Positions 1 to 39,895 of a stretch of DNA of 64,000 bases are shown piece after piece. The stretch is taken from contig CACYTP010000004.1 in assembly GCA_902777385.1 (NCBI GenBank), positions 124,001 through 188,000 of the forward strand, read 5' to 3'. Origin of the DNA: an uncultured bacterium (GTDB taxonomy: Bacteria; Cyanobacteriota; Vampirovibrionia; Gastranaerophilales; Gastranaerophilaceae). How positions within the stretch are numbered: the stretch's first letter is position 1; the number at the start of each line of letters is the position of its first letter. The translations under genes were made by a program, and so were the position numbers. The notes beneath the pieces are model-generated. The model ran no database searches. It was not told where the DNA came from and worked only from the letters and a program-made list of their open reading frames with translations.

Positions 1-360
1 TAAATCATCTTTAGTTGCCACGTGAGGTAATTTATAAGCTTCTTCAATATTTGTAACTGAAGCTATAACCTTGATAGACTTATAAGAGGATATAATATTA
101 TATAATTTATTTCTTATTTCATTTTTTTGTTCATAAGAGAGATGTTTCATACCGTTTTCATCACTGGTATTGTTAGGGGCAAAATACCTCCACTTAATTT
201 CGGAAGTAATTCCGTACTGTCTTTTTATTTCTCTAAGTTTAGAATATAAATCATGCCAGTGAATTTCAGGAATAATTACACCCCCTATTACGAAATACTT
301 AGAATGTTTTTTATTCTCTGGGACTATTGCCCCTGATTCATCTAAAAATAATAAATGCAT
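1..360 (-). CDS. DUF3800-family protein, N-terminal part, runs off the left edge
   Basis: This is an open frame of 120 codons with no stop before the window edge, so only the N-terminal part is visible. It opens with MHLLFLDESG, followed by YFVIGGVIIP and an IKWRYF segment. That is the DUF3800 pattern: an acidic DESG motif in the first strand, then a GG-V strand. DUF3800 proteins have been linked to abortive-infection and mobile-element cargo, and their chemistry is poorly defined. The gene points the same way as the Rep-like and integrase genes to its right and probably belongs to the same integrated element. The ATG at 360 is the only credible start seen. Family assignment is from motif recognition only. 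Confidence 0.7.
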   Translation of the reverse strand, partial: MHLLFLDESGAIVPENKKHSKYFVIGGVIIPEIHWHDLYSKLREIKRQYGITSEIKWRYFAPNNTSDENGMKHLSYEQKNEIRNKLYNIISSYKSIKVIASVTNIEEAYKLPHVATKDDL

Positions 361-407
361 GAATTCTACTCCTTACTATAATTCTATCATAAATTATACT
401 TTTTTTA

Positions 408-1475
408 TTAAATATTATTCTGAGCTTTTATATTATCCAAAATTTCTTTAATATATTCATTTTCATTTGTTTCCTGAAGATAGCTCAGCATTTTTTTATA
501 TTTATTATGCATATTATTCTCTTTAAAAACACTTTCTAATTTTTGAGCAATATCTAAGCCGTTATAATCTACCAGTATTTGTAAATAAACATTCGGCTTA
601 CGCTTTTGTTTTGGTGAAGTAGTTTTGAAAATTTTTAAAGTATAGTCTGTATAAAATTTATCCAGCATTTCATATAATTCACATTTATCAAGTAAATTAA
701 GGAAGTCTTTTAAATACAAATAATTTGTATGCTCAAAGCCGAAAAATTTACTAATTTCACATAACTTTTTACTGCTTTTTAAATGCCACTCTAATCTTAA
801 AATATTTAAACCGTTTAGTCTCAAAGTATTTGTACTTTTTTCATAATTTTGCTTAATTGCAGGAATTTTACACTCTTCATCGGATAATGTGTTTTTTAGG
901 ATAATTTCTGATAAGTGGTGAGTTTTTAATTCTTCAACCTTATCATAACATTTTAATTCTCTGTCTCCCACAGTATCTTTCTTTGTCAAATCTTTTGCTA
1001 CTGCAGAAATTGTTATGGTCTTGGTATAACATCCCGAATTTATAGATTTTACCTTGAATCCGTTGAAATATTTATAATTAAGAAAAGCTTCTAAATAATA
1101 ATAAATTTTTTTATTCATAAAAAAATTTTTAGTTAAATCGAGTATAGTTATCCTACAGGTTGACCGCAGTTCAAGTAAATTTTTATTTAAAAACAGCTCA
1201 TAAAACAAGTCCTTGATATGAATTTCTGCAGGCATGTCAAGGTTCGTATCTGTGTAATTTTTTAGCTCTAATATGGAATTATAATACCTTGTAGGTGTAA
1301 ACCAAAAATGGAGCATCCTACCTTTTTGGCTCAGCCAAACCATATATGAATTCTTAGCGTAATGTTTACTTAAAGTTGTTTCAATGTGTTTTTTTAACCC
1401 AAAAGCATATTCTTGACCTTTATCTTTTAACAAAAAATAACACTGTAATTTATCGATGAGTATGTTACCAAGCAT
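408..1475 (-). CDS. Rep-like protein (possible gene II/X-type replication initiator)
   Basis: This is a 355-residue protein. The middle (residues about 165-180) carries RELKCYDKVEELK and the region near 225-235 carries LNILRLEWHLK. The K-x-Y-D-K and R-x-E-x-x-L pairing resembles replication initiators of the filamentous-phage gene II/X type found on small mobile elements. No clear HUH nickase motif could be confirmed by eye, so the assignment is tentative. The start overlaps the end of the upstream gene by 11 bp and has a GAGGT ribosome site 7 nt upstream, so the two are translationally coupled. Position within an integrase-bearing element supports a replication or mobilisation role. It could equally be an unrelated element protein. 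Confidence 0.4.
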   Translation of the reverse strand: MLGNILIDKLQCYFLLKDKGQEYAFGLKKHIETTLSKHYAKNSYMVWLSQKGRMLHFWFTPTRYYNSILELKNYTDTNLDMPAEIHIKDLFYELFLNKNLLELRSTCRITILDLTKNFFMNKKIYYYLEAFLNYKYFNGFKVKSINSGCYTKTITISAVAKDLTKKDTVGDRELKCYDKVEELKTHHLSEIILKNTLSDEECKIPAIKQNYEKSTNTLRLNGLNILRLEWHLKSSKKLCEISKFFGFEHTNYLYLKDFLNLLDKCELYEMLDKFYTDYTLKIFKTTSPKQKRKPNVYLQILVDYNGLDIAQKLESVFKENNMHNKYKKMLSYLQETNENEYIKEILDNIKAQNNI

Positions 1476-2709
1476 AATAGTACCTCATTTCTGCTAAGAA
1501 CTCATCAAGTACAGATTTGGAAGGTTTCTTTAGTAACTTTCTTAACTTATTTACTTCACTTAAAATATTATCTCTCTGTCCTTTATGTACAAGGTACTTA
1601 CTTATAATTTCTTCTTGTAATTCAGGATGCAGTGCAATTAAGGTTACAACAGAAATTATTTCAGGAACATACCTTTTCCCTTTATACTGTTTTATATAGC
1701 TATTAAATTGCTTGTAATTTGATGTCTGTAATTGTTTCAAATTGCAATTGTCTAAGATTCCAGAAAGGCAAAAGAATAAGAAATTACGGATACAAGATAA
1801 TCCTGCATCATAAAGTTTGTTTATTCTTATAGAATATTTTGCATTCCAGCAAAATATTCTTCCTAAAGTTCTCTGTCCGCAGGCTCTTTTATATATAAAT
1901 TTTATGCAGTAAGGAGTGCTCCCCCTAACAATCCTGAATTTATTACTTATATTTTTATCTTTTGAATAATCTTCCTCATAATCCAAATTATCCCATCCAT
2001 ATTTTTCATAAGCTTCTTGGAGTATAATACTATTCTTTACTGTAAATTCAAGAGTCTGACTATCTGGAGTTTTCCCTATAACTAAATGTTTTTTATCCGC
2101 AGTATTTAAAGTTAGTAACTCTTCTACAAAAGCTCCATATAAAAAATCTGTTTCAATTTCAGTGTATGCCTCGAATCCTGTTATTATCCCTAAGTTTAGA
2201 TTATTATGTACAGAGCGGCAAAACCTTTCATATTCTGCTTTTTTAATATAAGGTTCTACAACAGAAAATATTAAAATCAGTATTGGAAAGTAGTAAAAAG
2301 CTGAAGCATATTCTAAAACTCTATCTTTAATGTATTCTTTGTCTTGGAGAGTACCTTTAAATATAGGTTTTGTATTAAAATTGTACAGCATATATGTATT
2401 TTTACTTATTTTAAAATTTACTACTGACCCTAATCCCTTATTTAAAAATAAAATAAAATCTTTAAGAATTTCTTTTTCAAAACCTGAATTTATTTTATTA
2501 TAAATTAATAACAGTCTTATAATTTTTCTTTTAAAGTTACTGCTATAAAAATTACTAACAACTTCTTTAACTTTAAAAGAAAAGAAATATTCCTTAATCT
2601 TTTTAATATTTACACTACTGTTAGGATATTTTTTTAAAATTATTTCAATATTTGTAAAATAAACAGAAAAAGAAAGACTATTATAAGTTGATTCAATTTC
2701 TTTTATCAT
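1465..2709 (-). CDS. Element-borne protein of unknown function
   Basis: This is a 414-residue protein that I do not recognise. It is rich in Lys, Ile, Phe and Tyr. Several hydrophobic stretches look like buried core rather than clear membrane helices, for example around residues 135-150 and 300-320. The start at 2709 was chosen over an in-frame ATG nine codons upstream because a perfect AGGAGG lies 4 nt before it. The C-terminus is basic and helical (KLRKLLKKPSK region). It overlaps the start of the Rep-like gene and lies downstream of the integrase gene on the same strand, so it is probably co-transcribed element cargo. Confidence 0.5.
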   Translation of the reverse strand: MIKEIESTYNSLSFSVYFTNIEIILKKYPNSSVNIKKIKEYFFSFKVKEVVSNFYSSNFKRKIIRLLLIYNKINSGFEKEILKDFILFLNKGLGSVVNFKISKNTYMLYNFNTKPIFKGTLQDKEYIKDRVLEYASAFYYFPILILIFSVVEPYIKKAEYERFCRSVHNNLNLGIITGFEAYTEIETDFLYGAFVEELLTLNTADKKHLVIGKTPDSQTLEFTVKNSIILQEAYEKYGWDNLDYEEDYSKDKNISNKFRIVRGSTPYCIKFIYKRACGQRTLGRIFCWNAKYSIRINKLYDAGLSCIRNFLFFCLSGILDNCNLKQLQTSNYKQFNSYIKQYKGKRYVPEIISVVTLIALHPELQEEIISKYLVHKGQRDNILSEVNKLRKLLKKPSKSVLDEFLAEMRYYYAW

Positions 2710-2807
2710 AAAACCTCCTATATTGTTATATTTCATGCAATTATTCTTAGCTTACTACTACTATTACTTATGTTATATATAAGGGTGGAATTACAGTTAA
2801 AGGTTTT

Positions 2808-3797
2808 TTAATACGCCTCTAGCTTACTCATAGCAGCAATTTTATATTCTTCGGTGGTATGCAAGTACCGTAATGTAGTTTTTATGTCCTTGTGTCCGAG
2901 AATTTCCTTAATTGTTACAATGTCAACTCCCAGTTCATTTAATCTTGAAGCTGTCGTGTGGCGTAGCTTGTGAAAAGTAATGTGGGGTATTCCTGCTTTC
3001 AAAACTGTTCTGCCAAAAGTAGTTTTGATATCCAGATATTTCCCCCTTGTTACAGGAGATGTAAAGACGTATTCACTTTCATGGAGTATTTCCGTTAATA
3101 CTTTTTTTACTTTATTTATTAGGGGAATCTTTCGGGGTTCGTTATTTTTGGTTTCTCGTACATATATGTATGGGTTCTTATTCCTTAAGAATACATCTTC
3201 CCATTTCAAATTCAATAATTCATTTGTCCTTAAGCCAGTGTATATAGCCACAATAATCATATTTTTCATTATAGGATTTGCAACCTCCAATAATTTAACT
3301 TCTTCATCCTTCATTAAAAAACGCTCTTCGGGATTTTTTATTCGGAGCTTTTTTAATTTAACACATGGATTTTCTTTTAATTTTCCATTTTCAACTGCTA
3401 AAGAAAAAATTCGTCTTATAATGTCAAGTTCCCTGTTAATACTTGAATTTTTAACTTTGCCTTTTCTAGAAGAAATATATTTATCAAAGTCCTGAAGTTT
3501 TATCAGATTTGCCTCTTTGTTACCTATAAGCTTAATAAATTTATCAATTACATAGTCAAATTCATCAGGGCGAGAACAATGAGTTTTCCTGTAAAGCTTA
3601 TAGTCCTTGTTAAGTTCTGCAAGATAAATTTTTCGCATTTTTAGTGGTGCTTGACCATTATTTACGGAAACTCTTAAATCTGCAGCTTTAAGAATAACTT
3701 CTTTCTCACTTGAATTTTTAAAAGACCGATGGTAGCGTTTACCATCAATCATAATATTAAATTCCCAGTGTCCAGCTTTATTTTTCTTTATCTTCAT
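2808..3797 (-). CDS. Tyrosine recombinase / integrase
   Basis: This is a 329-residue phage-type integrase. It has an N-terminal arm-binding region (about residues 1-60), a SAM-like core-binding domain (about 60-150) and a C-terminal catalytic domain. The visible catalytic residues are Arg in TGLRTNELLNL, a Lys in the beta-hairpin, the HKLRHTTA box giving His and Arg, a second His in LGHKDI, and the nucleophile Tyr in TTLRYLH. Length is normal for the family. Its ATG directly abuts the stop codon of the small excisionase-like gene, so the two form an operon. It presumably integrates its element at the adjacent tRNA-Pro, since the element lies on the 3' side of that tRNA. Confidence 0.93.
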   Translation of the reverse strand: MKIKKNKAGHWEFNIMIDGKRYHRSFKNSSEKEVILKAADLRVSVNNGQAPLKMRKIYLAELNKDYKLYRKTHCSRPDEFDYVIDKFIKLIGNKEANLIKLQDFDKYISSRKGKVKNSSINRELDIIRRIFSLAVENGKLKENPCVKLKKLRIKNPEERFLMKDEEVKLLEVANPIMKNMIIVAIYTGLRTNELLNLKWEDVFLRNKNPYIYVRETKNNEPRKIPLINKVKKVLTEILHESEYVFTSPVTRGKYLDIKTTFGRTVLKAGIPHITFHKLRHTTASRLNELGVDIVTIKEILGHKDIKTTLRYLHTTEEYKIAAMSKLEAY

Positions 3798-3983
3798 TTA
3801 TTCACCTAATATGACTTCTTTTGAAAATAAAAATTTCATTAATTCTTCTTTAAGGAACCTGTACTGAGTACCTACTTTTGTGCATACATTTTTAGGATAA
3901 TATTCTTCTTTTGCTTGTCTCTGTACAGTTCTTTTATCAATTCTTAACATTTTTGCAACTTCTTCCGTTGTTATAATAGTCAT
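3798..3983 (-). CDS. Small helix-turn-helix DNA-binding protein (excisionase-like)
   Basis: This is a 61-residue protein with one winged-helix/MerR-like HTH. TTEEVAKMLRIDKRTVQRQAKEE reads as a helix-turn-helix, followed by YPKNVC and a YRFLKEELMKFL helix, as in the excisionase-type HTH_17 family. Such proteins bind next to the integrase gene and bias recombination toward excision or regulate it. It abuts the integrase start with no gap and is divergent from the XRE regulator across a region holding two operator-like palindromes. Either excisionase or integrase regulator would fit. Confidence 0.75.
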   Translation of the reverse strand: MTIITTEEVAKMLRIDKRTVQRQAKEEYYPKNVCTKVGTQYRFLKEELMKFLFSKEVILGE

Positions 3984-3999
3984 CTAATACTACCTTTCT

Positions 4000-4013
4000 A
4001 CGAATTATTTCGT
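4000..4013. promoter_or_regulatory. Operator-like palindrome 1 (ACGA-N6-TCGT)
   Basis: The sequence ACGAATTATTTCGT is a near-perfect dyad between the divergent excisionase-like and XRE genes. The same ACGA-N6-TCGT spacing occurs again at 4056-4069, and both are preceded by CT. This is probably the binding site of the adjacent XRE regulator. The binding partner is inferred from position. Confidence 0.5.
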
Positions 4014-4055
4014 TATATTAATATATTAGCATAGAAAACAAAATGTGTCAAATCT

Positions 4056-4069
4056 ACGAAACAAGTCGT
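4056..4069. promoter_or_regulatory. Operator-like palindrome 2 (ACGA-N6-TCGT)
   Basis: ACGAAACAAGTCGT repeats the half-sites of the palindrome at 4000-4013 with identical 6-bp spacing, 56 bp away. It lies just upstream of the -35 box of the XRE gene, where a bound regulator could control both divergent promoters. Confidence 0.5.
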
Positions 4070-4083
4070 CATAAGCATACATG

Positions 4084-4112
4084 TTGACAGAATTAAAAAA
4101 TAAAGCAATAAT
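4084..4112 (+). promoter_or_regulatory. Sigma-70-type promoter of the XRE gene
   Basis: TTGACA at 4084-4089 is separated by 17 bp from AATAAT at 4107-4112. It lies 32 bp before the XRE start codon and immediately downstream of the second operator-like palindrome. Confidence 0.65.
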
Positions 4113-4144
4113 AAGTATGTGTAGTACTGTAGAGGGTTTAAATC

Positions 4145-4612
4145 ATGGATAGAAAAACTGCAAAAAGGACAATTATGAACATGGTAGCAGACGCGGGCTA
4201 TCCTATGGCTTCGGAAACGGAAGCTATTGAAAAGCTTATACTAAAAAAGCTGGGAACATATATTGCTACACAGAGAAAGCAGAAAGGTATTACTCAAAAG
4301 GAGTTAAATAACCTTTCCTCTGTCAGCTTGGCTGTTATTGCAGATCTCGAAAATGGAAAGAGTATGCCGAGAGTAGAGACCCTAATAAGATTGGCTATTG
4401 CTTTGAAAATTAATGTGAATGATATTTTTGAGACTATGAAGTGTGATACGAACAATGCTTTAATGAAGCCAATTAAAGCAAAAAGCTCTCGTGATTCTGA
4501 ATTAGCTTCAGCCATTGCAGGTTTTGGCTATGAGAAAAATATGGTAAATGAAATTATGGATTTTATCAGTTTTATCGAGTATAAGTACAAAAAGAACAAT
4601 TCACGACATTAA
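4145..4612 (+). CDS. XRE-family (Cro/CI-type) transcriptional regulator
   Basis: This is a 155-residue protein. Residues about 35-95 form an HTH_3 domain: the segments IATQRKQKGITQKELNN, VIADLENGKSMPRVETL and LAIALKINVNDIFE match the five-helix XRE fold. An N-terminal extension of about 35 residues and a C-terminal helical tail flank it. It is divergent from the integrase/excisionase operon and transcribed toward tRNA-Pro, the usual place for the repressor of an integrative element. The two ACGA-N6-TCGT palindromes upstream are candidate operators. Specific DNA targets are not known. Confidence 0.85.
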   Translation: MDRKTAKRTIMNMVADAGYPMASETEAIEKLILKKLGTYIATQRKQKGITQKELNNLSSVSLAVIADLENGKSMPRVETLIRLAIALKINVNDIFETMKCDTNNALMKPIKAKSSRDSELASAIAGFGYEKNMVNEIMDFISFIEYKYKKNNSRH

Positions 4613-4636
4613 AATACTATTACGACAAAAACTGCA

Positions 4637-4660
4637 ATTACACAAAAAATTACACAAAAA
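4637..4660. repeat. Two abutting 12-bp direct repeats near the element end
   Basis: ATTACACAAAAA occurs at 4637-4648 and again at 4649-4660 with no gap. The pair lies between the last element gene and tRNA-Pro. Short tandem repeats close to the junction are typical arm-type integrase sites, so that is the likely role. This is inference from position. Confidence 0.5.
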
Positions 4661-4667
4661 CATAAAT

Positions 4668-4698
4668 AAAGGACTTCAGTAAATCTCTGAAGTCCTTT
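4668..4698. terminator. Bidirectional rho-independent terminator between XRE gene and tRNA-Pro
   Basis: This is a perfect 12-bp stem, AAAGGACTTCAG / CTGAAGTCCTTT, around a 7-nt loop. T-rich sequence follows on both strands. It can end tRNA-Pro transcription on the minus strand and XRE transcription on the plus strand. Confidence 0.8.
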
Positions 4699-4706
4699 AT
4701 TTTAAA

Positions 4707-4783
4707 TGGTCGGGATGACACGATTTGAACGTGCGACCCCCTCGTCCCAAGCGAGGTGCGCTACCAAGCTGCGCCACATCCCG
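4707..4783 (-). tRNA. tRNA-Pro (TGG)
   Basis: This folds as a full cloverleaf on the minus strand. Acceptor CGGGATG pairs with CATCCCG, the D-stem is GCGC/GCGC, the anticodon stem CCTCG/CGAGG encloses CTTGGGA (anticodon TGG), and the T-loop is TTCAAAT. The 3' CCA is encoded. A mobile element lies immediately beyond the 3' end, which makes this its likely attachment site. A truncated copy of the tRNA 5' end lies 126 bp upstream. Confidence 0.95.
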
Positions 4784-4909
4784 TCGAAGCACTCGGTTAT
4801 ACCGAGATTTTATATTTATTTGTCAATTGTACCGTGCGGCTCGGTGTTTCCTCTCCTCGGAAGATACTTAATCTTCCTCGTCGGCAGAGTCAAGCTGCAC
4901 CACATCCCG
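4784..4909 (-). repeat. 126-bp pseudo-tRNA unit upstream of tRNA-Pro
   Basis: Read on the minus strand, the unit starts with a 19-nt copy of the tRNA-Pro 5' end (4909-4891, one mismatch, C to T in the D-stem). A 44-nt hairpin insert follows (4890-4847). The sequence then resumes at CAC, as at the start of the anticodon arm, diverges, and reaches a TTGACA box at 4826-4821 that probably drives the real tRNA. The 3' half of the tRNA is missing. The offset to the real tRNA is exactly 126 bp, the same period as the units upstream of tRNA-Thr(GGT) at 39644-39895. Confidence 0.75.
4847..4890 (-). ncRNA. 44-nt hairpin module inside the pseudo-tRNA-Pro unit
   Basis: Layout on the minus strand: ACTCTGCCGA, a stem with core GGAAGAT/ATCTTCC around loop TAAGT, then GAGAGGAAA. 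CTCT can pair with AGAG to close the module. The module has the same length and fixed flanks as the two at the tRNA-Thr locus, but a different, compensated stem. Expression is plausible because a consensus promoter lies upstream at 4943-4971. The function is unknown. Confidence 0.45.
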
Positions 4910-4942
4910 TCGAAAAAATTTTTCAACACAGGGTACTTAAAA

Positions 4943-4971
4943 ATTCTATTTTAAAAATAAATCAAAGTCAA
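4943..4971 (-). promoter_or_regulatory. Consensus promoter upstream of the pseudo-tRNA-Pro unit
   Basis: On the minus strand TTGACT (4971-4966) is separated by exactly 17 bp from TAGAAT (4948-4943). Transcription would start about 25 nt before the tRNA-5'-end copy and read through the hairpin module toward tRNA-Pro. Confidence 0.6.
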
Positions 4972-39283: not shown

Positions 39284-39469
39284 TGGGCAGGGGTGGATTA
39301 ATCACTTCGCTCACGTTAAACGTGCCTTCGGTTGATTGCTCCATAATTTTTAATTATTCCGCAATCAAGCCTACGCACTTCGCTCGCTCGTTCCGAACCA
39401 ACTACAGGGCTTTGCCCTGTGTGGTTCTCATCCACCTACTAAAAAAGACCCTTTCGGGTCTTAAAAGTT
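39284..39469 (-). repeat. tRNA-Tyr downstream unit (186 bp)
   Basis: Read on the minus strand, tRNA-Tyr is followed by a terminator and then an inverted T-arm (GGTGGATGAGAACCACACAG). Next are hairpins (CAGGGC/GCCCTG, and a TTGATTGC/GCAATCAA stem) and finally a copy of the tRNA 3' tail ending CCACCCCTGCCC at 39285. The block GAACCxCACAGG-hairpin-CCTGT...GGTTCGG is shared with tRNA-Lys unit 1. Confidence 0.6.
39441..39463 (-). terminator. Terminator of the Thr-Thr-Tyr tRNA cluster
   Basis: On the minus strand TAAGACCCGAAAGGGTCTTTTTT forms a GACCC-GAAA-GGGTC stem with six T. Confidence 0.9.
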
Positions 39470-39571: not shown

Positions 39572-39643
39572 TGCCTTTGATGGGATTTGAACCCATGGCC
39601 TCTCCCTTACCAAGGGAGTGCGCTACCCCTGCGCCACAAAGGC
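39572..39643 (-). tRNA. tRNA-Thr (GGT)
   Basis: Acceptor GCCTTTG/CAAAGGC, D-stem GCGC/GCGC, anticodon stem CTCCC/GGGAG around TTGGTAA (anticodon GGT), T-loop TTCAAAT. The CCA is not encoded. Two truncated copies of its 5' end lie upstream at 126-bp steps. Confidence 0.95.
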
Positions 39644-39769
39644 TCATTACCTTCAAAGTTTTATTTTATTGTCAATTCGCACTTTCTGATATTTCTACCA
39701 AGGGAGTGCTTCCTCTCGAAAAACAATACTCAATTGTTTTTCTCGGCAGAGTCCCTGCGTCACAAAGGC
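39644..39769 (-). repeat. 126-bp pseudo-tRNA-Thr unit, proximal copy
   Basis: On the minus strand it comprises 17 nt of the tRNA-Thr 5' end (39769-39753, one mismatch, GGCGC to GACGC), a 44-nt hairpin insert (39752-39709) and the anticodon-arm 5' half CACTCCCTTGGTA (39708-39696). A spacer with TTGACA then leads to the real tRNA. The 3' half of the tRNA is absent. It differs from the distal copy at only 3 of 126 positions. Confidence 0.8.
39709..39752 (-). ncRNA. 44-nt hairpin module, proximal tRNA-Thr unit
   Basis: ACTCTGCCGA, then a perfect 10-bp stem GAAAAACAAT/ATTGTTTTTC around loop TGAGT, then GAGAGGAAG. The length and flanks match the tRNA-Pro module, while the stem bases differ in a compensated way. 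The A/T-rich stem could also act as a weak terminator. Confidence 0.45.
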
Positions 39770-39895
39770 TCATTACCTTCAAAGTTTTATTTTGTTGTCA
39801 ATTCGCACTTTCTGATATTTCTACCAAGGGAGTGCTTCCTCTCGAAAAACAATACTCAATTGTTTTTCTCGGCAGAGTCCCTGTGCCACAAAGGC
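39770..39895 (-). repeat. 126-bp pseudo-tRNA-Thr unit, distal copy
   Basis: Same layout as the proximal copy. The tRNA-5' segment (39895-39879) carries a different single mismatch, GGCGC to GGCAC. Upstream of it lies the spacer after tRNA-Thr(TGT), with TTGATA at 39927-39922 in place of TTGACA. Confidence 0.8.
39835..39878 (-). ncRNA. 44-nt hairpin module, distal tRNA-Thr unit
   Basis: It is identical in sequence to the proximal module at 39709-39752. Both copies keep the stem intact while the surrounding tRNA-5' copies have each picked up a D-stem-breaking change. Confidence 0.45.

What the first reader, a model, noticed from the sequence alone, without database searches (positions are those of the whole stretch)
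4784..4971. tRNA-Pro carries the same 126-bp pseudo-tRNA unit behind a consensus promoter
Seen: the tRNA-5' copy at 4909-4891 is exactly 126 bp from the real tRNA 5' end, the same period as at tRNA-Thr, although the two sequences outside the module are unrelated. Its segments are 19+44+63 nt versus 17+44+65, so total length is conserved while the parts vary. TTGACT-17-TAGAAT lies upstream. A fixed period suggests a defined element or constraint rather than random duplication. The transcript would start with a tRNA-like 5' end, which RNase P or tRNA-binding proteins might meet.
Basis: partly seen in the sequence, partly recalled or inferred. Interest (0 to 1): 0.75.

Follow-up and report, generated by a model that had tools for sequence, protein, structure and literature searches.

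The report
Hairpin modules welded to tRNA gene ends
In a group of gut bacteria related to cyanobacteria, short covarying hairpin elements sit inside partial copies of tRNA gene ends next to many intact tRNA genes; the one reported here is one of these, and its 126-base spacing is a coincidence rather than a rule.

Summary
In detail: a 19-nt copy of the tRNA-Pro 5' end (4909-4891, minus strand, one mismatch) lies 126 bp from the real 5' end, followed by a hairpin module (4890-4850), behind TTGACT-17-TAGAAT. The fixed period is not right: in 52 tRNA-proximal units the distance runs from 77 to 165 bp (mean 110), and only the two loci in this window give 126. Orthologous tRNA-Pro(TGG) loci of the genus are empty, or carry one unit, a doublet, two or three units. 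The promoter is evidently the tRNA's own. The real feature is the hairpin: ACTCTGCCGA-stem-loop-GAGAGG, with double changes in all 10 variable stem pairs, found in 85 of 194 phylum genomes sampled, all 85 of one family, and with no Rfam match. Of 113 cores with a tRNA within 300 nt, 103 point toward it (82 sense at 5' ends, 21 antisense at 3' ends). In this genome 18 of 41 tRNAs carry a terminal copy, against 1 of 39 in a core-free relative. I read it as a clade-specific propagating palindromic module, fixed at tRNA ends together with a local tandem duplication. A leader-RNA function is not excluded.

The parts
4707..4783 (-). intact tRNA-Pro(TGG) gene
   Evidence: ARAGORN; Rfam RF00005, 62.3 bits
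4891..4909 (-). 19-nt copy of the tRNA-Pro 5' end, 1 mismatch; the direct repeat runs on to 4914
   Evidence: direct repeat, spacing 126
4850..4890 (-). core hairpin ACTCTGCCGA-stem-loop (UAAGU)-stem-GAGAGG
   Evidence: pattern, covariance model R1, 59.1 bits, covariation
4784..4849 (-). spacer: second hairpin / closing-strand region (4849-4829), leader-like TTGACAAATAAATAT (4826-4812), small hairpin (4806-4792)
   Evidence: sequence, folds, inverted repeat 4792-4806
4943..4971 (-). promoter of the tRNA-Pro transcription unit, TTGACT-17-TAGAAT
   Evidence: a similar site stands upstream of the tRNA in empty orthologous loci
4664..4702 (-). intrinsic terminator-like hairpin downstream of tRNA-Pro
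39644..39895 (-). two 126-bp units upstream of tRNA-Thr(GGT): tRNA 5' copy, core hairpin, tRNA D-arm/anticodon segment, leader
39712..39752 (-). core hairpin, tRNA-Thr proximal unit
39838..39878 (-). core hairpin, tRNA-Thr distal unit
39572..39643 (-). intact tRNA-Thr(GGT) gene
39287..39437 (-). second structured element ('B') in a duplicated 3' end of tRNA-Tyr; ends approximate

Best explanation
The module is one copy of a family of short palindromic elements that spreads within the order Gastranaerophilales. The element folds in one strand: a conserved base (CUCU/AGAG with an asymmetric GCCGA/G internal loop), a freely covarying stem of about 9-12 bp and a mostly constant loop. At tRNA genes it sits where the outermost 9-27 nt of the gene have been copied, at the D-stem, D-loop or D/anticodon junction from the 5' side and mostly in the T-arm from the 3' side. 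The intact gene follows. I propose that copy and module arise in one event: DNA synthesis entering the tRNA gene from outside stalls at the first stem-loop, a hairpin module is inserted, and synthesis restarts in the flank and reads through. That leaves copy, module and intact gene; unequal crossing-over then gives tandem arrays. In 5' arrays the unit lies in the tRNA leader, behind the tRNA's own promoter, and is predicted to fold on itself, so it is probably tolerated. Shown: anatomy, covariation, clade limit, orientation rule, presence/absence between species. Inferred: the event order, the stalling step and near-neutrality.
For: Covariation: 97.3% of cells paired against 83.4% in shuffles, 10 pairs with double changes, 0 of 500 shuffles reach the covariation score. 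Clade limit: 85 of 194 phylum genomes match, all 85 of the home family; no family member stands among the 20 unmatched genomes listed (3 of the class, 17 of the phylum), and 89 more unmatched genomes are not listed; 2 of 4 members of family f6 of the order also hit. Orientation: 103 toward and 10 away, of which 6 belong to the next tRNA in line or to a truncated contig. Coupling: 18 of 41 tRNAs of the home genome have a terminal copy, 1 of 39 in core-free G124; in the home genome each of the 5 tRNAs with a 5' copy has a core or a core remnant, and by eye all 13 3' copies carry element B or a reverse core. Turnover: empty, 1, doublet, 2 and 3 units at orthologous tRNA-Pro(TGG) loci. Copies are young or homogenised: 19 mismatches in 1107 nt, 59 of 73 perfect. 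Dispersal outside tRNAs: identical cores in palindromic repeats of G077.
Against: No transposase is known for it: no Y1_Tnp in the home genome. Presence throughout the family and arrays of up to 4 units would also fit a useful function. Closing stems and second hairpins are stronger than shuffles on average (mean z -1.0 and -1.8, 71 units of both sides), which selection could explain; but that shuffle was mononucleotide and part of the pairing is leftover tRNA D-arm. 7 of the 11 cores in the home genome lie in tandem repeats of three loci, so independent events are fewer than cores.
Confidence: 0.5

Rival explanations
1. The 5' units are functional leader RNAs: behind the tRNA promoter, tandem hairpin units tune transcription or processing of the tRNA, the core being a protein-binding hairpin.
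For: 82 of 113 tRNA-near cores are sense and upstream; strand-specific fold: G.A mismatches 28 against C.T 3 in stems; closing stem and second hairpin stronger than mononucleotide shuffles; found throughout the family; boxA-like TTGAAAACTAAATA leaders in many units (the likeness to boxA is recalled).
Against: 21 cores sit antisense at tRNA 3' ends, where the tRNA transcript would hold the reverse complement. Orthologous loci lack the unit in 4 of the 9 genomes with the TGG gene, one further locus being cut by a contig end. G.T against A.C mismatches are 14 to 9, not significant. The G.A excess comes largely from one related stem variant. Leaders without units also carry the boxA-like motif.
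Confidence: 0.22
2. The core is a folded recombination site (attC-like in architecture: conserved base, variable stem and tip) used by a tyrosine recombinase, and the arrays are ORF-less cassettes at tRNA ends.
For: Conserved base with asymmetric loop and variable tip; tandem units; tRNA genes are classical integrase targets (established knowledge); an integrase gene is 0.9 kb from this tRNA.
Against: Units carry the sequence of their own tRNA and show no exchange between different tRNAs. The integrase at 2808-3797 is better explained by an integrated element at the 3' end of tRNA-Pro. No recombinase was linked to cores here.
Confidence: 0.12
3. Ordinary tRNA pseudogene by tandem duplication, the hairpin being incidental.
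For: The copy is a partial tRNA next to an intact one.
Against: The same hairpin family recurs at many tRNA types and outside tRNAs and covaries; core-free G124 has 1 such copy in 39 tRNAs.
Confidence: 0.04
4. Duplicated tRNA ends act as decoy attachment sites that divert integrating phages from the real gene.
For: 13 of 41 tRNAs have 3'-end copies, and 3' ends are the usual integrase targets (established knowledge).
Against: 5'-end copies are not usual targets; in this genome the integrated element sits at tRNA-Pro, which has only a 5' copy; no integration into a copy was seen.
Confidence: 0.06

Closest known systems
REP elements (GTAG- and CGTC-tagged palindromes; PMC3733652, passages read)
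   Same: short palindromic repeat, many copies, mostly intergenic, single-strand fold, clade-specific families, tandem arrays occur
   Different: tag is CTCTGCCGA at the 5' base, not GTAG or CGTC; no Y1/RAYT-type transposase found in the home genome; tied to copied tRNA ends
Repetitive hairpin-forming elements of sponge mitochondria (PMC2800124, passages read)
   Same: dispersed hairpins, some in tandem, considered mobile, no known enzyme
   Different: there stems are conserved and loops vary; here stems covary and the loop is mostly constant; no tRNA-end copies in the passages read
Rickettsia palindromic elements (recalled; only a search listing seen)
   Same: palindromic modules inserted into genes
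   Different: recalled as being mostly in protein genes; no tRNA-end duplication recalled
Integron attC sites (recalled)
   Same: folded single strand, conserved base, variable tip
   Different: no AAC/GTT boxes seen, no cassette exchange, no integron integrase shown

Membership tests
GTAG-REP / RAYT system | short imperfect palindrome in many copies | tested here: met
GTAG-REP / RAYT system | GTAG (or CGTC) tag at one end | tested here: not met
   invariant 5' tag ACTCTGCCGA and 3' GAGAGG in the 50 aligned cores (the pattern used to collect them demanded most of these letters)
GTAG-REP / RAYT system | Y1 (HUH) tyrosine transposase in the genome | tested here: not met
   PF01797: 0 matches in G000, found in 5 of 14 control genomes; other genomes of the family not tested
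Known Rfam RNA family | score above a gathering threshold | tested here: not met
   only tRNAs pass in the window; no credible hit at E up to 10 on 4780-4960
Repetitive hairpin-forming elements | repeated hairpin at dispersed sites | tested here: met
Repetitive hairpin-forming elements | conserved stems and variable loops | tested here: not met
   10 of 10 inner stem pairs change on both sides; loop columns 21 and 23-25 at least 90% constant
Integron attC site | recombination by an integrase on the folded strand | not testable with these tools
   needs an assay
Phage element | presence in viral contigs | tested here: not met
   3 pattern matches in viral contigs, none forming the hairpin by eye; plasmids not searched
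tRNA leader regulatory RNA | transcribed and alters tRNA output | not testable with these tools
   needs RNA-seq and deletion

The most novel reading that the evidence does not exclude
A clade-wide system of structured modules (this core and the unrelated element B) that targets the first stem-loop of tRNA genes from either end, and each time copies the end of the gene so that the intact tRNA survives: a tRNA-end-specific propagation mechanism acting on folded single strands with an unknown enzyme, possibly later used as leader RNA.
Probability: 0.25. Interest if true: 0.8.

Novelty: new variant of a known kind. Interest (0 to 1): 0.55.

Why it matters
tRNA genes are the best-known landing sites of mobile DNA, yet hairpin modules that come with copied tRNA ends at both sides of the gene turned up in none of the paper searches made here. 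In this genome they mark 18 of 41 tRNA genes. If propagation is real it implies an unidentified mechanism acting on folded strands; if the units are functional they are a new kind of tRNA leader. Either way the presence/absence polymorphism between species makes it testable.

Tried and rejected
Rejected: a fixed 126-bp period; the promoter as the unit's own; Rfam families; viral origin (the 3 viral matches are not hairpins); a Y1/RAYT driver in the home genome; a plain pseudogene.

Led nowhere: one search used a wrong gap range for element B and its 0 matches are no evidence; the regular expressions caught only a few B copies, so B was not modelled. Searches use different core filters and so give different totals (76, 136, 97, 176, 71, 189, 73). 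The filter dropped stems with tandem G.A mismatches, among them the window's own core. Redundancy was removed by flanking sequence only. The loci fetched with tRNA-Pro as query (L160-L182) over-represent Pro; the genome contigs subset (34 sense, 10 antisense, 4 away, 50 with no tRNA within 300 nt) avoids that bias.

Full report
CHECK. The copy of the tRNA-Pro 5' end is real: 19 nt at 4909-4891 with one mismatch, within a 24-nt direct repeat at spacing 126, next to tRNA-Pro(TGG) at 4707-4783. The module behind it matches the module of the two tRNA-Thr units; no shuffle of the window reproduces the pattern. The promoter TTGACT-17-TAGAAT at 4971-4943 is present. Such sites are common in shuffles of so A+T-rich a stretch, but upstream of the tRNA in empty orthologous loci a similar site stands at a comparable place, which is better evidence that it is the tRNA's promoter.

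WHERE IT IS. Named contigs with the module are mostly Candidatus Gastranaerophilales / Melainabacteria from gut and rumen. A covariance model (R1) finds 11 cores in the home genome. In 194 genomes drawn from the phylum 85 match, all of the home family; among the 20 unmatched genomes listed 3 are of the class and 17 of the phylum, none of the family, and 89 further unmatched genomes are not listed, so '85 of 85 of the family' rests on the listing order. An exact pattern finds it in 25 of 57 relatives, including 2 of 4 genomes of another family (f6) of the order.

ANATOMY. The core is ACTCTGCCGA, a stem of about 9-12 bp, a loop that is usually UAAGU or UGAGU closed by AU/AU pairs, then GAGAGG. 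In 50 distinct cores of equal length all ten inner pairs show changes on both sides and 97.3% of cells pair; the four outer pairs never vary, partly because the search pattern demanded them. Stem mismatches are G.A far more often than C.T (28 to 3), which points to folding of this strand, though one stem variant supplies most of them. Other loop types occur. In many units the strand after the core is complementary to the copied tRNA end, and a second hairpin follows: over 71 units mean z is -1.0 for the closing duplex and -1.8 for the spacer hairpin against mononucleotide shuffles. Some of this is leftover D-arm sequence, some is a true reverse complement of tRNA sequence (for example GGTGCGCTACA in L164).

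PERIOD. Over 52 units nearest to a tRNA the distance from copy start to tRNA start is 77-165, mean 110, s.d. 17; 126 occurs twice, the two loci of this window. In the home genome: 126 (Pro), 126 twice (Thr), 122 twice (Leu-TAA), 102 three times (Leu-TAG), and a 37-nt remnant (Leu-GAG). Copy lengths fall in classes of 9-13, 18-21 and 25-27 nt, that is, at the D-stem, the D-loop and the D/anticodon junction.

ORTHOLOGUES. tRNA-Pro(TGG) was retrieved in nine genomes of the genus, the home genome included: no unit in G009, G010, G001 and G008; one in G000; two cores in one unit in G004, with closely similar upstream sequence; two units in G002 (partly masked); three in G012; G003 is cut by a contig end. 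tRNA-Pro(CGG) has units in most of the genus but not in G000 (L182). Gain and loss are therefore quick, and copies are 98.3% identical to their tRNA (19 mismatches in 1107 nt, 73 units).

BOTH ENDS. Of 189 non-redundant cores in all loci held, 113 have a tRNA within 300 nt; 103 point toward it, 82 sense from the 5' side and 21 antisense from the 3' side; 10 point away, 6 of which belong to the next tRNA in line or lie at a contig end. None is antisense and pointing away. In the home genome 5 of 41 tRNAs have a 5' copy and 13 a 3' copy, none both; a core-free genome of the same class has 1 of 39. The 3' copies of the home genome hold either a reverse core (Phe, Glu) or a second structured element, B (judged by eye). 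I saw no copy without a module in the home genome. A sample of 29 tRNAs of two congeners (part of the 82 matches) gives 10 with a copy, 2 at the 5' side and 9 at the 3' side; one 5' copy there (L310) has no intact core tag upstream and was not examined further.

OUTSIDE tRNAs. In G077 identical cores lie in composite palindromic repeats (most of the 16 places fetched). In L044, L052, L119, L144 and others a core lies inside a longer dispersed repeat of several hundred bases; the L044 copy has no Rfam match.

INTERPRETATION. Spread to unrelated places and nesting in other palindromes argue for a propagating palindromic module. The sense/antisense symmetry at the two tRNA ends argues against one RNA function for all copies and for a process at DNA level that enters the gene from outside; the acceptor stem makes both entries look alike. 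That no copy of the home genome lacks a module argues that duplication and insertion are one event. I therefore prefer templated insertion during stalled synthesis, followed by unequal crossing-over. This is inference; no enzyme was found, and the home genome has no Y1 transposase. The leader-RNA rival keeps 0.22 because 5' units are transcribed by position, carry leader motifs and are found throughout the family.

Right on the observation and on 'a defined element', wrong on the fixed period, and unsupported on the RNase P idea: the predicted transcript starts before the copy, and the predicted fold pairs part of the copy away. In the minimum-energy fold of the whole leader the tRNA acceptor stem still forms with its own strand, though the interior is not a full cloverleaf.

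LITERATURE. Eight searches gave no description of this element; passages of two papers were read, otherwise only search listings. The library is open-access only.

Noticed in passing
window 39287-39437 (-), and downstream of Gln, Gly, Ile, Leu-CAG, Lys, Ser-CGA, Thr-CGT, Val tRNAs of the home genome: A second structured element (B, about 125-150 nt: GAGAAC-hairpin-GTTCG, GAGxGCGxAG...CGxAGxCxCGTT, AAGACAGTC) sits inside duplicated tRNA 3' ends; some variable positions appear to covary; no Rfam match in the four loci tested.
   Followed up: partly
window 1-4707 and G000:C4:115040-115096: A 57-bp perfect copy of the tRNA-Pro 3' part lies about 13.6 kb from the gene, with a tyrosine integrase (2808-3797, PF00589) and an HTH regulator (4145-4612) in between: probably an integrated element at the tRNA-Pro 3' end.
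   Followed up: partly
L044 1290-1840 and similar places in L050, L052, L061, L063, L119, L143, L144, L154: A dispersed repeat of several hundred bases, starting near GTCTGAGGC.GCCTCGCTTGTA and ending near AGTCGGAGTCAGTTGAC, apparently structured, carries one or two cores; no Rfam match for the L044 copy.
   Followed up: partly
L161 1340-1450; L177; L181: Nested cases: two cores side by side in one unit (L161), and a long insert inside a core (L177, L181).
   Followed up: no
leaders of many tRNAs of the home genome: A boxA-like TTGAAAACTAAATA motif stands before many tRNAs, with or without units; the likeness to boxA is recalled.
   Followed up: no
L254 and L253: Arrays of four units at tRNA-Leu(GAG) (5' side, period 128) and tRNA-Leu(CAA) (3' side, period about 107).
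   Followed up: no
L310: A 5' copy of a tRNA-Met end 90 nt upstream without the intact core tag; it may be a decayed unit.
   Followed up: no
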